62,188 nt of DNA from Oscillospiraceae bacterium (GTDB lineage: Bacteria > Bacillota_A > Clostridia > Oscillospirales > Oscillospiraceae): positions 1 to 62,188 of the forward strand of contig JAFQHF010000075.1 in the NCBI GenBank assembly GCA_017398105.1. The letters are read 5' to 3'. Shown piece by piece: positions 10,619 to 62,188 of the stretch. Under the pieces are notes generated by a model that saw only the letters and a program-made list of their open reading frames with translations, did not search any database and was not told the origin of the DNA. Within the stretch, counting starts at the first letter, position 1, and each line of letters opens with the position of its first letter. Made by a program: the position numbers and the translations under genes.

Positions 10619-10891
10619 ATGCTTCGGGATCGATGGAATGCCTTGTCAGCTGCCGGGAAGCGGCTTCGCATCATGCAGCTTATCTTTTTCGTGCTTACAG
10701 TCACAGCAGCCTCTTTGCAGCTTTCCGGGATTTGGAAGGATGCCAACCTGCTCGCCGTTCCCTCGGTTGGACTGGTGATTTTCATTCAGTCCCTGCTGGA
10801 ATGGAAGCGCAATCGGGTAACCGCTGTACTGGGTTTTCTTGCATCTGTCAGTGTCGGAATCATGTTCCTTCTCGGACTTTATCTGAAATAA
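10619..10891 (+). CDS. Small membrane protein of unknown function
   Basis: This 90-residue protein has a basic N-terminus (MLRDRWNALSAAGKRLR) and three hydrophobic segments, roughly residues 18-36, 44-60 and 68-88. AGGAGG lies eleven bases before the ATG. I recognise no family. It converges on addA, and a terminator follows immediately (10898-10930) that is duplicated on the far side of a non-coding element. Confidence 0.6.
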   Translation: MLRDRWNALSAAGKRLRIMQLIFFVLTVTAASLQLSGIWKDANLLAVPSVGLVIFIQSLLEWKRNRVTAVLGFLASVSVGIMFLLGLYLK

Positions 10892-10897
10892 GCCAAA

Positions 10898-11263
10898 GGC
10901 GGCTCCGTGAATATACGGAGCCGCCGCTGTATGTCAAAAATCCCCTTCGGGGCTTTTCGCCAGTTTTTTTGCAGTCTGCTGCGCGCACTTCGTCGATGCA
11001 TCAGATACACTGTTGCATTTTCCGCAAGCAGAAAATTCCACCCGTATCTGTGCATCTCCTCTCCCCATCAAGCACAATTTGCTTGATGGGGGCCCCGTAG
11101 CCAATGGCGTAAAAATTCCACACTTGCATCCTGAGCAGTATTTTCTGCCAGGTACACGCCCCGGCAGAAAATGTTTTTCACTTTATTTCCCGCTTTCGCA
11201 GAAAACTCTGCGAGGCTTTATTGAAAATCTGAGGCGGCTCCGTGAATATACGGAGCCGCTGTT
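10898..11263. mobile_element. Terminator-flanked non-coding element, copy 1
   Basis: Left and right borders are near-identical terminator hairpins. GGCGGCTCCGTG...CGGAGCC plus GCTGT is at 10898-10930 and again at 11233-11263, where the T-tract is intact. Between them are about 300 bases with no convincing gene. The first 63 bases (10929-10991) and last 112 bases (11120-11231) align closely with the element at 38493-38696 in opposite orientation; the middle 130 bases do not. The left module has hairpin CCCCTTCGGGG followed by TTTTCGCCAG. The right module has CACTTGCA, GTACACGCC and a TTTCGCAGAAAACTCTGCGA hairpin. Confidence 0.6.
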
Positions 11264-11264
11264 T

Positions 11265-14200
11265 TTATACCTCTACATACCGGTTCAACCGGAAGAAATA
11301 CAGATATTTTGCTTTGATTCCGGTTTCATAGATCCTGCTCAGCGCTTCTGCATAGGTCTGCAGCTGAGTACGATACCTGGCTGCCGCTGCTGCCAGGGTT
11401 TCCTCTGTTACATGATCCGTTTTAAAATCCAGGATGGTGATCCCGTCCTCTTCCAGAAGCGCACAGTCCACAACGCCCTGCAGCAAAACCTGCTCCCCTT
11501 CCAGGCCGTCGCCGTAATGACTTCCATCATCCAAAATGGAGAATTTAAATTCCCGCAGATGTTCAATGCCGCCGCAGAGCTTTTTTCCGATATCCGAAGC
11601 AAAGAAGGCCGCTATTTTTTCTCCGTCCACCAGGCTTCCCTGCTCCTCCGTCAGGAAGCGGCTGTCCACAAGCCGCCGGATCTCCGCCTTTACGGACTGC
11701 ACATCAGCGCAGTTCTCGTAACGAATATACTGCATGGCCGCATGGATGGCATTGCCGTAGGCCTTTCCGCCAACGGACTTCTCCAGGAATTTTGGCTGCC
11801 GCCAGCGCCGGAGGATCTGTACCGGTTCTGCAGTATCCTCTGCCGCTTCTTCATCCTTCTGTCGTCCCTTCCGGTCCGTTGCGGTCTGCTTGGAGGGAGC
11901 CTGGGTCGCCGGCAGGTGGGTATACCGGAAGCCCAGAGCTTCACGAAGCTGCATTTGCGCCTGGCCCGGCATTTCTTTTCTTTCACCGGACATTCCGGAG
12001 GTTCTTTCTTCCGGATCAGACGCCGAATCCACAGTGATCTTCCACGGATAGTCGCAGAGCACGGTGTTCTCCGGCTTTCCGCCCAAGGCATGGAGCTGAC
12101 CTGCTTCCATTCTTTGTACCGCCGCCATCAAAACCCAGTCACCCATACAGATGGCATCCCGGCACAGCAGTTCACCGCCGTCATAGCCCAGACGCATTGC
12201 CGCGTCCTGAATATCCTTATCCGGATTTTTGGCCGCATAGGTCATGATCAGCCGATCCCGTGCCCGGGTCATGGCAACATACAGAACCCGCATTTCCTCG
12301 CTGACGCTTTCCTCCATCATTTTTGCGCCAATTGCCGCCTTGGCTATGGACGGATATCGGACGCGGTTCTTCGTATCCGCAACGGACAGTCCCAGCCCCA
12401 GCTCCCTGTCGCACAGGATCTGGGCCTGAAGATCCTTCTGATTGAACTTCCTGGACAGATTACACAGGAAAACCACCGGGAATTCCAGTCCCTTGGACTT
12501 ATGGATGCTCATGATATTGACGCAGCCGGAAGCAGCACCGGAGGCCATCACCATTCCCCGCTCCTCCAGTGCATCCAGATGCTCCAGGAACTGGGACAGA
12601 TCCTTCAGGCTTCCATTCTCAAAATCCGCCGCCAGCTGGTAAAAGATCTGAAGATTCTCCCGTTTGACCTGCCCGTCCTCCATAGCTGCATAAATGCTGT
12701 CAAGCCGCGTCAGATGAAAGCAGACCTCCAAAAGTCCGGTCAGGGTATTCATTCTGGCCTCACGGCGCAGGCGATCCAGCACAGTCAGAAACTGTCCTGC
12801 TTTTTCATGCTCGGATCCCAGCAGAGCATCATAAAAGCTTCCCTTCTTTTCCGCACTGCGTACTGCCGCCAGATCCTCTGCAGTAAAACCGAAAATCGGA
12901 CTCGCCAAAGCGCTGATCAGCGGAATATCCTGCCGGGGATTTACGATCACCTGCAAAAAAGCCCGCAGCGTACCGATCTCCTGGGTCTGCAGCAGATCTG
13001 TTCCGCCGCCGGATGCACAGCGAATACCCCGCTCCTCCAATGCACGCTGAAAATAACCGGCGGCGCTGCCGGGAGAGCGCAGCAAGATCACAATGTCCTC
13101 CGGAGCCACCGGCTTAAGGGTGCCGTCCTTGCGAACCAGTGTCCCCTGATCCAGCATTGCCTTAATTTTTTCCGCAGCAAAGGCCGCCTCCTCCGGATAG
13201 GTTTCCTGCTGCACCGAAAGCACGTGAAATTCCACACCGGGTTCCGGCAGAGGTTCATGAGGAATTCCCTCCCGCAGCGCTTCCGCATCGCCGTAGTGCA
13301 GGCCGCCAACACTGGGCCGCATACAGGAACGGAATACATGGTTGACACCCTCCACCACCTCCGGCCCGGAACGGAAATTGTGGCTCAGCAGAACCTTCCT
13401 GTCCTCGCCCGTCTTTGCGTCTTCCGCCGGGATATGTGTCTGATACTTTTTCAGGAAAATCCCCGGATCTGCCAGACGGAACCGATAGATGGACTGCTTC
13501 ACGTCACCGACCAAAAAGCAGTTGTTCCTCTGACGGGTCAGCGCATCGAAAATGGCATCCTGCACACCGTTGGAGTCCTGATACTCGTCCACCAGTATCT
13601 CCCGAAACTGCGCTGCGATCTCCTGTGCTGCCACGGTGGGACCTGACCGGGATTTTCCCAGCAGCAGATCCAGGGTCTTATGCTCCAAATCCCCAAAATC
13701 CAGAACTCTCCTGCTTCTTTTTGCAGCGGCATAGTCCGTTCCGAACTGCCGCACCAGCGCCACCAGACCCCTTGCCCCGGCAGCGCACTGGCTAAGATCC
13801 CGGCTGATCTGCTCTGAATTATCCGCAAAGCTGTGCAGCTTCTTATCCAATCCTTTTTTCAATGCATTTCGGACCGCTTTGACCCGCTCGATCAGATCAA
13901 AATCCACATCTTTTCTCGGAAAGGACAATCTGCCGTAATCTATGCTGCGCAGGGAAACGATCTGATCCCAGCTGTCTGCTAAGCGCAGCGCTTCCAGCTG
14001 ATACAGAATATCCGCAAATACCTTGGCCGGTTTTTCCATTCTGTCGCTGGACTGCAGCTGACGGACACACAGGCGAAGCACCTGGATCTGGCAGTCCAGA
14101 TAACTGTGAAGATCCCGGATCAAATACGCACCCCAGGGTGTTTTTGAGATATCCGTACAGTCCTCCTGCTGCACATCACGCAGGCACTGTTCAAGCCAGC

Positions 14201-14774
14201 CTTCCGGGTCCAGATGACACCGGGCGCTGTCGTACACCTGTTCCAGCAGCTGCGGTACAAGCCGGTCATCGCGTCCCAGCCCCTGAGAATCCACAAAAGC
14301 CCGAAAATCTTCATTTTCTCCGGCACTTTCGTAGGCCCGGTCCAGAAGTTCAGAGAGCACCGTTTCCCGGATCTCACGGCATTCATTTTCATCCGCCACC
14401 CGGAAATCTGCTGCCAGATCCATCCGATAGGCATACTGGCGGAGAAGATCACTGCAAAAGCCATGAACGGTGGAGATCTTCGTCAGATACAGCCGCTGCA
14501 TCTGCTTTTGCAGGTGCCGATTCTCCGGCTCCAGGGCAATGCGCTGCGTCAGCTTGTCCGCGATTTTTCCCCGCAGCTCCGAAGCCGCTGCCCGGGTGTA
14601 GGTAATGATCAGAAAATCATCCAGATTGGCAGGCTCGCTGGGATCAGTCAGATAGGTCAGCAGCCGATCCACCAGCACCTTTGTTTTACCAGAACCCGCT
14701 GCAGCAGAAACCAGCAGTTTTCCGCCCCGGTCATGGACTGCCATATGCTGTTGAGGTGTCAGTTTTTCAGCCAT
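11265..14774 (-). CDS. addA: ATP-dependent helicase/nuclease subunit AddA
   Basis: This 1169-residue protein is the UvrD-like helicase and nuclease subunit of AddAB, which processes double-strand breaks for recombination. Walker A is AAAGSGKTKVLVDRLL near residue 22. DEYQDSN (helicase motif II), VGDVKQSIYRFR (motif III) and LYVAMTRARDRLI (motif VI) follow in order. The C-terminal RecB-type nuclease core is visible as QGVVDCALLEEDGITILDFKTDHV. The start has AAAGGAG ten bases upstream and overlaps the addB stop by eight bases, so the pair is coupled. Length is normal. It is the last gene of the ispE-spoIIR-addB-addA cluster. Confidence 0.96.
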   Translation of the reverse strand: MAEKLTPQQHMAVHDRGGKLLVSAAAGSGKTKVLVDRLLTYLTDPSEPANLDDFLIITYTRAAASELRGKIADKLTQRIALEPENRHLQKQMQRLYLTKISTVHGFCSDLLRQYAYRMDLAADFRVADENECREIRETVLSELLDRAYESAGENEDFRAFVDSQGLGRDDRLVPQLLEQVYDSARCHLDPEGWLEQCLRDVQQEDCTDISKTPWGAYLIRDLHSYLDCQIQVLRLCVRQLQSSDRMEKPAKVFADILYQLEALRLADSWDQIVSLRSIDYGRLSFPRKDVDFDLIERVKAVRNALKKGLDKKLHSFADNSEQISRDLSQCAAGARGLVALVRQFGTDYAAAKRSRRVLDFGDLEHKTLDLLLGKSRSGPTVAAQEIAAQFREILVDEYQDSNGVQDAIFDALTRQRNNCFLVGDVKQSIYRFRLADPGIFLKKYQTHIPAEDAKTGEDRKVLLSHNFRSGPEVVEGVNHVFRSCMRPSVGGLHYGDAEALREGIPHEPLPEPGVEFHVLSVQQETYPEEAAFAAEKIKAMLDQGTLVRKDGTLKPVAPEDIVILLRSPGSAAGYFQRALEERGIRCASGGGTDLLQTQEIGTLRAFLQVIVNPRQDIPLISALASPIFGFTAEDLAAVRSAEKKGSFYDALLGSEHEKAGQFLTVLDRLRREARMNTLTGLLEVCFHLTRLDSIYAAMEDGQVKRENLQIFYQLAADFENGSLKDLSQFLEHLDALEERGMVMASGAASGCVNIMSIHKSKGLEFPVVFLCNLSRKFNQKDLQAQILCDRELGLGLSVADTKNRVRYPSIAKAAIGAKMMEESVSEEMRVLYVAMTRARDRLIMTYAAKNPDKDIQDAAMRLGYDGGELLCRDAICMGDWVLMAAVQRMEAGQLHALGGKPENTVLCDYPWKITVDSASDPEERTSGMSGERKEMPGQAQMQLREALGFRYTHLPATQAPSKQTATDRKGRQKDEEAAEDTAEPVQILRRWRQPKFLEKSVGGKAYGNAIHAAMQYIRYENCADVQSVKAEIRRLVDSRFLTEEQGSLVDGEKIAAFFASDIGKKLCGGIEHLREFKFSILDDGSHYGDGLEGEQVLLQGVVDCALLEEDGITILDFKTDHVTEETLAAAAARYRTQLQTYAEALSRIYETGIKAKYLYFFRLNRYVEV

Positions 14775-38473: not shown

Positions 38474-38718
38474 AAAGACCGCCCGGAGGCGGTCTCAGAC
38501 TGGCAAAAAAGGCTTCGCAGAATTTGCCGCCAAAGCGGCAAACCCATTTAAATCATTTTTGGCCGCGGCGTGTACGTGGACAAAAATACATCTCAGACTG
38601 CAAGTGTGCGAGTTGTGTGCCTTCGGCGCACAAGGAGTGCACACAGCAGGCTGTAAAAAAGCTGGCGGAAAAGCCCGAAGGGCTTTTTCGACAAACAAAG
38701 ACCGCCCGGAGGCGGTCT
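38474..38718. mobile_element. Terminator-flanked non-coding element, copy 2
   Basis: A 22-bp hairpin sequence, AAAGACCGCCCGG plus AGGCGGTCT, is present identically at 38474-38495 and 38697-38718. The roughly 200 bases between show no gene. Read on the minus strand they match copy 1 at both ends: GCCCTTCGGGC, TTTTCCGCCAG and CAGCCTGCTGTGTGCAC on one side, and CACTTGCAGTCTGAG, GTACACGCCGCGGC and TTCTGCGAAGCC on the other. Because the flanking terminators differ in sequence between the two copies but match within each copy, they behave like a target duplication. Confidence 0.62.
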
Positions 38719-38724
38719 TTCTGA

Positions 38725-38880
38725 TTATTCCTGAGAGAACATATCCTTCCCGACGGAGCACAGGGGACACTCGAAATCCTCGGGCACGTCCTCCCACTTG
38801 GTTCCGGGAAGAATCCCGCCGTCCAGGTAGCCTTCGGCCTCGTCATAGACCCAACCGCAAACATCGCATACATACTTCAT
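38725..38880 (-). CDS. Rubredoxin
   Basis: This is a 51-residue rubredoxin. The iron is bound by CDVCG near residue 5 and CPLCSVG near residue 39, with the usual WVYDEAEG and PGTKWEDVPEDF between them. It carries electrons to flavodiiron proteins and peroxide-reducing enzymes in anaerobes; fprA lies 2 kb away. The ATG at 38880 follows a GAGAGGAG site. Its terminator is the right copy of the duplicated hairpin. Confidence 0.95.
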   Translation of the reverse strand: MKYVCDVCGWVYDEAEGYLDGGILPGTKWEDVPEDFECPLCSVGKDMFSQE

Positions 38881-62020: not shown

Positions 62021-62049
62021 AAAAGACCTGCCGGATCGGCAGGTCTTTT
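62021..62049 (+). terminator. Terminator of the HD-domain gene
   Basis: AAAAGACCTGCC and GGCAGGTCTTTT pair around GGATC. It is directly followed by CAGACTGTCAAAAAA, which matches the end of the terminator-flanked element. Confidence 0.85.
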
Positions 62050-62097
62050 CAGACTGTCAAAAAAGTAGATTTACACGTAAAAGTTTACCAAAATGCA

Positions 62098-62170
62098 CAG
62101 CACCCAAAGCCTCCCTTGTGTAAAGGGAGGTGGCTCGCCGTAAGGCGAGACGGAGGGATTGTGCAGAGAA
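62098..62170. repeat. Double-hairpin intergenic repeat at the window edge
   Basis: Two adjacent hairpins are seen: CCTCCCTT-GTGT-AAAGGGAGG (about 62110-62130) and CTCGCC-GTAA-GGCGAG (about 62134-62149), followed by ACGGAGGGATTGTGC. The outer GCACAGCACCC/GGATTGTGC flanks are partly complementary. This kind of double hairpin is a frequent REP-like repeat in gut clostridia by my recollection; no second copy is in this window. Confidence 0.55.
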
Positions 62171-62188
62171 ATCTTACGTATTCGCATA

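What the first reader, a model, noticed from the sequence alone, without database searches (positions are those of the whole stretch)
10898..11263. Non-coding element flanked by a duplicated terminator (copy 1)
The terminator shared by the 90-residue membrane protein gene and addA occurs twice, 300 bases apart, as near-perfect direct repeats (25 identical bases plus GCTGT). Everything between is non-coding and matches, over two modules of about 63 and 112 bases, a second locus in this window that is flanked by a different duplicated terminator. A mobile element that targets terminators and duplicates the whole hairpin would explain this. A structured RNA copied with its terminator is an alternative.
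Basis: seen in the sequence. Interest (0 to 1): 0.72.

Follow-up and report, generated by a model that had tools for sequence, protein, structure and literature searches.

The report
Hairpin-duplicating IS1182-type miniature transposon
A short, gene-less jumping DNA element lands on transcription-terminator hairpins and leaves a full copy of the hairpin on each side of itself, so both neighbouring genes can keep a stop signal; it is probably moved by a branch of the IS1182 transposase family.

Summary
Copy 1 (10897-11259) and copy 2 (38474-38718, minus strand) belong to a ~202-bp miniature transposon (MITE) family with ends like CAGnCTGTCrAAAA. It is multicopy in relatives from the genus of Candidatus Faecousia. 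Of 78 distinct copies with both ends, 63 are flanked by a locus-specific direct repeat of 17-35 nt (40 of them perfect), against 0 of 1000 mismatched-flank controls; 59 of the 63 repeats score as stem-loops. Two loci have clear single-hairpin empty sites in other species. Elements with other interiors but the same ends behave alike, which argues against an RNA copied with its terminator. Partner elements of 1.5-1.6 kb encode IS1182-family DDE transposases, have the same ends and duplicate hairpins. In a wider IS1182 sample, duplicators lie on one side of a branch (support 100/97, after I relabelled four rows post hoc). IS1182 members are known to target palindromes; the best-described, IS1272, deletes its hairpin target and leaves no duplication. 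Whole-hairpin duplication had been drawn as a hypothetical pathway (PMC5678879). Attack at both 5' feet of an extruded cruciform would explain why duplication length follows the hairpin; that step is inferred.

The parts
10897..10924 (.). Left copy of the duplicated target hairpin (after the 90-aa ORF)
   Evidence: 100% identical to 11232-11259
10925..11231 (+). MITE copy 1; 305 bp if counted from the degenerate left end CTGTATGTCAAAAA at 10927; right end TTATTGAAAATCTG ends at 11231
   Evidence: matches the MITE profile in two blocks, model 3-63 and 71-202
10991..11099 (.). Stretch inside copy 1 that is mostly extra (about 100 nt) relative to the 202-position profile
11232..11259 (.). Right copy of the duplicated target hairpin (after addA)
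10619..10891 (+). 90-aa ORF converging on the hairpin
   Evidence: relatives 59-70% identical
38474..38495 (.). Copy 2: one duplicated hairpin (22 nt)
   Evidence: 100% identical to 38697-38718
38496..38698 (-). MITE copy 2 (about 203 bp; junction with the hairpin ambiguous by 2 nt)
38697..38718 (.). Copy 2: other duplicated hairpin, after the ORF 38725-38880 (-), which looks like a rubredoxin (recalled, no family search)
62021..62049 (.). Hairpin directly abutting a third element end
   Evidence: sequence read by eye
62050..62188 (+). Third element: end CAGACTGTCAAAAAAG followed by a different interior; runs off the window

Best explanation
Copies 1 and 2 are non-autonomous IS1182-type transposons (MITEs). 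SHOWN by sequence: ends like CAGnCTGTCrAAAA in inverted orientation; length near 202 bp in most copies; many copies in relatives; most copies bounded by a direct repeat that is a locus-specific stem-loop; single-hairpin empty sites in other species for some loci; IS1182-family transposase elements in sister genomes with the same ends and the same whole-hairpin duplication. [quoted passage not shown] At a four-way junction these two sites lie next to each other however long the arm is, so gap filling copies the whole hairpin and duplication length follows hairpin length. Both convergent genes can keep a terminator, which would make the landing site tolerable.
For: Window copies. Flanking repeats: 63 of 78 distinct two-ended copies, 17-35 nt, median 27; 0 of 1000 mismatched-flank controls reach the score; 40 of 63 are perfect. 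Hairpin nature: inverted-repeat score >=8 in 59 of 63, control 6 of 126. Repeat length follows hairpin span: Spearman 0.58, n=61, median offset 0 at both ends, 46 of 61 within 4 nt. Hairpin at the element's edge, matched 34-nt windows: left 72 of 77 (control 1 of 77), right 69 of 78 (control 4 of 78). Empty sites. Other interiors, same behaviour. Partners with a transposase; IS1182 identity NF033551 383-410 bits (cut-off 270) and PF13751/PF05598, three proteins tested. Multi-copy ISs elsewhere: hairpin duplication in 5 of 6, 3 of 3, 3 of 3 and 3 of 3 copies in four sets. One branch of the tree, 100/97.
Against: 15 of 78 copies lack a clear duplication; L081 and L084 show no convincing hairpin pair. 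Full-length ISs L108 and L109 have different hairpins on their two sides, L112 shares only 9 nt, and G173 copy L249 has two different hairpins. Of 20 loci taken by end pattern, 5 with two ends (L190, L191, L195, L205, L209) have no strong repeat. A cruder hairpin measure gave r=0.37, with 42 of 63 within 3 nt at both ends. Of five genomes aligning across the L070 site, only two show a hairpin there by eye. The window's genome is not held and the window has no match to the one IS1182 transposase tried, so supply of transposase there is inferred. The first tree labelling needed 4 changes, not 1; four rows were relabelled afterwards, and the tool warned of long branches. Copies were chosen by hand from hits to copy 2 and are not independent; the profile was trained on 46 copies that had strong repeats. 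Cruciform extrusion is not shown.
Confidence: 0.87

Rival explanations
1. Structured RNA gene copied together with its terminator by ordinary duplication or recombination.
For: The 46-sequence alignment folds at -36.5 kcal/mol against a mean of -5.6 for 30 column shuffles, and the reverse strand at -56.3 with no control made; column shuffling is a weak control.
Against: The flanking hairpin differs from locus to locus; empty sites keep one hairpin; elements with other interiors but the same ends behave alike; transposase-bearing elements do the same; the covariation term on the tested strand is +3.0, unfavourable as I read the sign; Rfam shows no RNA family but tRNAs at gathering score.
Confidence: 0.02
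2. The transposase reads the inverted repeat in duplex DNA, or a hairpin on single-stranded (lagging-strand) DNA, rather than an extruded cruciform, and cuts at both bases.
For: The same products are expected. The hairpins share no sequence; a run of TTTT or AAAA lies beside 40 of 63 (no control).
Against: Variable spacing (17-64 nt) is hard for a rigid dimer on linear duplex, whereas at a four-way junction the two sites are adjacent (geometry, inference).
Confidence: 0.3
3. IS1272-like hairpin replacement (the target stem-loop is deleted, no duplication), the apparent repeats being two separate hairpins.
For: IS1272 is an IS1182-family member that targets hairpins and terminators (PMC4923244 passages, PMC5678879 sections).
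Against: 63 of 78 copies have the same hairpin on both sides; empty sites hold one copy of it.
Confidence: 0.03

Closest known systems
IS1182 family (NF033551; PF13751, PF05598, PF01609)
   Same: Three partner transposases match the family well above cut-off. Some members target palindromes (Siguier et al. 2015 as cited in PMC4923244 and PMC5678879; original not read).
   Different: Here the entire hairpin is duplicated, with length following the hairpin, and a MITE swarm uses it. Other members are listed with 4-bp duplications: ISPse1 (PMC3281130, table passage) and ISCaa15 (PMC3196728, table passage). PMC12056078 (passages) says the family acts with or without target duplication or deletion. 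I recall, from no call, that ISfinder-type tables list IS1182 duplications as variable.
IS1272 / TnSha1 (staphylococci, IS1182 family)
   Same: Targets hairpins, several of them transcription terminators, with no sequence consensus.
   Different: IS1272 removes the stem-loop and leaves no duplication (PMC5678879: abstract, sections 22, 24 and part 1 of 29; PMC4923244: passages). The Fig 13 legend of PMC5678879 draws whole stem-loop duplication as hypothetical pathway b, which fits what is seen here.
Bacterial MITEs (review PMC10969869, passages)
   Same: Short elements with terminal inverted repeats and target duplications, often intergenic.
   Different: The term IS1182 has no occurrence in its main text; the passages seen mention no hairpin-sized duplication.
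IS elements targeting repeated palindromes (ISPpu9, IS1111)
   Same: Extragenic palindromic targets (ISPpu9: abstract start of PMC8450116 in a search listing; IS1111: passage of PMC10969869).
   Different: Those use particular palindrome families; here hairpins of unrelated sequence serve.

Membership tests
MITE | Short, without a transposase gene, many copies | tested here: met
   About 202 bp; matches in 30 of 101 genomes, 3 of them only to the terminator and 1 only over 36 nt; no match to an IS1182 transposase in the window
MITE | Terminal inverted repeats shared with an autonomous element | tested here: met
   CAGnCTGTCrAAAA-like ends in MITEs and in IS1182 elements; copy 1's left end is degenerate
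MITE | Target site duplication and empty sites | tested here: met
   63 of 78 copies; clear empty sites for 2 of 16 loci, a third in part
MITE | Mobilised in trans by the partner transposase | not testable with these tools
   Needs an experiment
IS1182 family (partner elements) | IS1182-type DDE transposase | tested here: met
   NF033551 383-410 bits, cut-off 270; PF13751 and PF05598; 3 proteins tested
IS1182 family (partner elements) | Palindromic target (some members) | tested here: met
IS1272-type stem-loop replacement | Target stem-loop deleted, no duplication | tested here: not met
   Hairpin present on both sides
Structured RNA family | Known Rfam family or covarying pairs | tested here: not met
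   No Rfam hit but tRNAs at gathering score; covariation term +3.0 on one strand, not computed for the other
Group IIC introns (terminator-targeting; recalled) | Intron-encoded reverse transcriptase or intron fold | tested here: inconclusive
   No intron family in Rfam at gathering score; partner elements carry a DDE transposase; no search for a reverse transcriptase was made

The most novel reading that the evidence does not exclude
One branch of the IS1182 family uses a cruciform four-way junction as its target, so the length of its target duplication is set not by the transposase but by the arm of the hairpin it lands on (17-64 nt seen). By construction it leaves a terminator on both sides, which lets MITE swarms fill the terminators of a genome at little cost.
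Probability: 0.6. Interest if true: 0.78.

Novelty: new variant of a known kind. Interest (0 to 1): 0.64.

Why it matters
Target duplication length is normally a fixed signature of a transposase. Here it varies with a DNA structure, which makes structure-directed target choice readable from genomes and directly testable in vitro. It gives natural evidence for a pathway drawn only as a hypothesis for IS1272, separates two target modes within one family, and explains a class of intergenic repeats flanked by doubled terminators. An element that lands on many different terminators without removing them could also be of use as a gene-insertion tool.

Tried and rejected
Structured RNA: rejected as the main explanation. 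Replacement without duplication: rejected for this branch. Orthologous addA loci as empty sites for copy 1: no match to the element in L001-L006; by eye they have a terminator-like hairpin after addA, but the downstream gene differs and in L005 another repeat lies between, so they are weak evidence. Orthologues of the gene downstream of copy 2: 29 loci; a rubredoxin-like gene was found in two of them (L134, L141), adjacent only in L134, which has one hairpin by eye and no element. G370: its direct repeats first looked like IS duplications, but for 5 of its 6 copies they lie outside the copies' shared region, roughly 115-145 nt away, so it is read as an IS1182-type element nested in a MITE; the sixth copy (L256) shows no repeat. 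G225: the repeats found are not hairpins; tandem or nested copies suspected. Correlation of repeat and hairpin length: the first measure gave r=0.37 because stems were extended through mismatches; perfect stems gave 0.59-0.60. The edge-hairpin control (1 of 77) used shorter windows than the test; one search repeats it with equal windows. Tree labels: the first labelling (13 dup, 21 non, 4 changes) had L230 as duplicator and L213, L216, L217 as non-duplicators. After reading their flanks (L230 nested; L216 cut by a contig end close to its ORF; L217 with different hairpins on its two sides; L213 with a hairpin at its left end and no direct repeat found) I moved L230 to non and left the other three unassigned, giving one change. 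This was done after seeing the tree. Single-stranded hairpin and duplex reading could not be separated from a cruciform.

Full report
The observation. The hairpin between the convergent 90-aa ORF (10619-10891, +) and addA (11265-14774, -) is present twice as a perfect 28-nt copy, 10897-10924 and 11232-11259. The DNA between matches, in two blocks, a second place in the window on the minus strand (38484-38608 at E 1.9e-15, 38636-38697 at E 4.1e-11), which is bounded by a different perfect 22-nt duplicated hairpin (38474-38495, 38697-38718). Rfam at gathering score finds only four tRNAs in the window.

Relatives. The window's genome is not held. The six addA loci found are 59-70% identical and come from Oscillospiraceae and other Bacillota MAGs. 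A search with copy 2 in the genus of one of them (G002) gave matches in 30 of 101 genomes, with 7 or 8 matches in 16 of them, 7 candidates per genome being scored. Three of the 30 (G022, G080, G101) match only the terminator part of the query, and G084 has only a 36-nt match. The genome of Candidatus Faecousia intestinigallinarum (L006 lies in G006) and G002 both appear in the list for the genus of G047, so the group is that genus; whether the window belongs to it was not tested. I used 31 loci returned by searches and 60 more chosen by hand from the hit list.

Ends and duplication. A profile of 202 positions was built from 46 copies, chosen for length 195-206 and strong repeats. It was then run on everything fetched so far. 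Eighty elements have both ends (copy 1, which has an insert, was added by hand); two were identical duplicates and were dropped and nine partial ones not counted, leaving 78 distinct. Of these, 63 have a flanking direct repeat with score >=14, which none of 1000 mismatched left-right flank pairs reaches (maximum 13); 40 of the 63 are perfect. The repeats are 17-35 nt, median 27. In the rebuilt single-copy site the repeat is an inverted repeat with score >=8 in 59 of 63, against 6 of 126 control windows. The span of the perfect stem-loop and the repeat length correlate (Spearman 0.58, n=61), with median offset 0 at both ends and 46 of 61 agreeing within 4 nt; a looser measure gave r=0.37 and 42 of 63 within 3 nt at both ends. 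With equal 34-nt windows, a hairpin abuts the element on the left in 72 of 77 copies (control 1 of 77) and on the right in 69 of 78 (control 4 of 78). Among the 15 copies without a clear repeat, 12 have a hairpin at the left, 11 at the right and 9 at both. Some of these hairpins plainly differ (L061), as expected if recombination between copies exchanged flanks; others are diverged versions of one hairpin (L098, L082). L081 and L084 remain unexplained.

Empty sites. Sixteen joined flank pairs were searched in 136 genomes, two candidates scored per genome, and the 30 loci returned were realigned. For L069, five other genomes carry the continuous site with a single hairpin of nearly the same sequence (93, 84, 84, 77 and 78% identity over the site). 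For L076, three genomes carry a single, diverged hairpin. For L070, five genomes align across; two (L176, L177) show one hairpin of another sequence by eye and three show none. The other 13 loci gave no crossing alignment among those 30 loci. For window copy 2, the syntenic gene pair in G008 (L134) has one hairpin by eye and no element.

The partner. IS elements with the same ends occur in sister genomes. Six (L108, L109, L110, L113, L114, L126) have an open frame of 473-503 aa from the first ATG; the G008 copy (L107) is broken by a stop. Three proteins were tested and match NCBIfam IS1182 at 383-410 bits (cut-off 270) and Pfam PF13751 and PF05598. L107, L110, L113, L114 and L126 are flanked by duplicated hairpins of 25 (one mismatch), 34, 25, 64 and 27 nt. 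L108 and L109 have different hairpins on their two sides, L112 shares 9 nt, and L115 is cut by a contig end. Of 20 loci taken by hand from a list of end-pattern matches, 11 have two ends and a repeat with score >=18: L207 and L208 belong to the main family, L197 matches it weakly, and L192, L193, L194, L196, L198, L200, L201 and L206 do not match the profile. Five with two ends have no strong repeat (L190, L191, L195, L205, L209), and four have no second end in the fetched stretch (L199, L202-L204). So the property goes with the ends rather than with the interior.

Across the family. In a phylum-wide sample, 48 of 249 genomes have an IS1182 transposase at E<=1e-60. I examined 60 copies from 15 genomes (16 sets), chosen because several copies let the ends be found, and the 30 loci returned, some of which are the same copies; two of the 30 (L222, L226) had no usable frame. 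Whole-hairpin duplication was seen in G173 (5 of 6), the first IS of G157 (3 of 3), G275 (3 of 3) and G339 (3 of 3), and in the single loci L214, L220 and L234. It was not seen in ten sets (G286, G291, G342, G317, G340, G231, G283, G139, G373 and the second IS of G157), seven of which have ends of the GGGGCTGT or GGGGCCGT type; G370 (nested) and G225 (tandem or nested) are unresolved. In a tree of 38 transposases the 12 duplicators lie on one side of a branch with support 100/97 against 19 non-duplicators, with seven rows unassigned. An earlier labelling gave four changes; four rows were relabelled after their flanks were read, as told under Tried and rejected. The root is unknown and the program warned of long branches, so 'one branch' is not proof of one origin.

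Mechanism. In DDE transposition the element's 3' ends attack the target strands at a stagger, and gap filling duplicates the stagger (established). A stagger that follows a hairpin from 17 to 64 nt means that the attack points are the feet of the hairpin. In an extruded cruciform those feet meet at the four-way junction whatever the arm length. PMC5678879 (abstract, sections 22, 24 and part 1 of 29) draws this as hypothetical pathway b while reporting that IS1272 itself removes the stem-loop; PMC4923244 (passages) reports the same removal, and terminator targets, for TnSha1/IS1272. The duplications, empty sites and ends are shown here; the cruciform and trans-mobilisation are inferred.

Literature. 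Eight searches of the held library listed no title or abstract start that reports whole-hairpin duplication by an IS1182 element or MITE. Six papers were opened, for passages or sections only: PMC5678879, PMC4923244, PMC12056078, PMC3281130, PMC3196728 and PMC10969869; PMC8450116 was seen as a listing. PMC3281130 and PMC3196728 list 4-bp duplications for two other IS1182 members. Subscription papers and ISfinder/TnPedia pages were not available; I recall, without a source here, that IS1182 duplications are tabulated as variable. The novelty claim is therefore limited to a new variant of a known kind.

Noticed in passing
window 62021-62188: A third element end CAGACTGTCAAAAAAG directly follows a hairpin and has a different interior; it runs off the window, so its second hairpin cannot be checked.
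   Followed up: partly
window 10991-11099: Copy 1 holds about 100 extra bases in the middle of the element, including an inverted repeat CCCCATCAAGCACAATTTGCTTGATGGGG; a 310-bp relative (L208) also has a longer middle.
   Followed up: partly
L010, L024, L098 flanks: In some insertions the two hairpin copies differ by paired compensating changes (L010) or by a reverse-complemented or changed loop (L024, L098), as if both are kept as hairpins or flip.
   Followed up: no
L252-L257 and L230 (G370): For 5 of 6 copies, direct repeats lie outside the shared IS1182 sequence: apparently another IS1182-type element nested inside a MITE that itself lies between duplicated hairpins.
   Followed up: partly
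L276-L279 (G317) and the GGGGCTGT/GGGGCCGT-ended group (L240-L245, L260-L265, L272-L275, L283-L285, L289-L294): The other IS1182 branch shows no hairpin duplication; some flanks are complementary across the insertion (e.g. L278 TAGCGCC / GGCGCTA), suggesting insertion inside or replacement of a palindrome.
   Followed up: partly
L013 (G045) and L048 (G047): The same insertion with the same flanks occurs in two genomes, presumably inherited.
   Followed up: no
L005, after addA: Another repeat type (AATGGATAATGGAAAATG...) sits in the addA downstream region of this relative.
   Followed up: no
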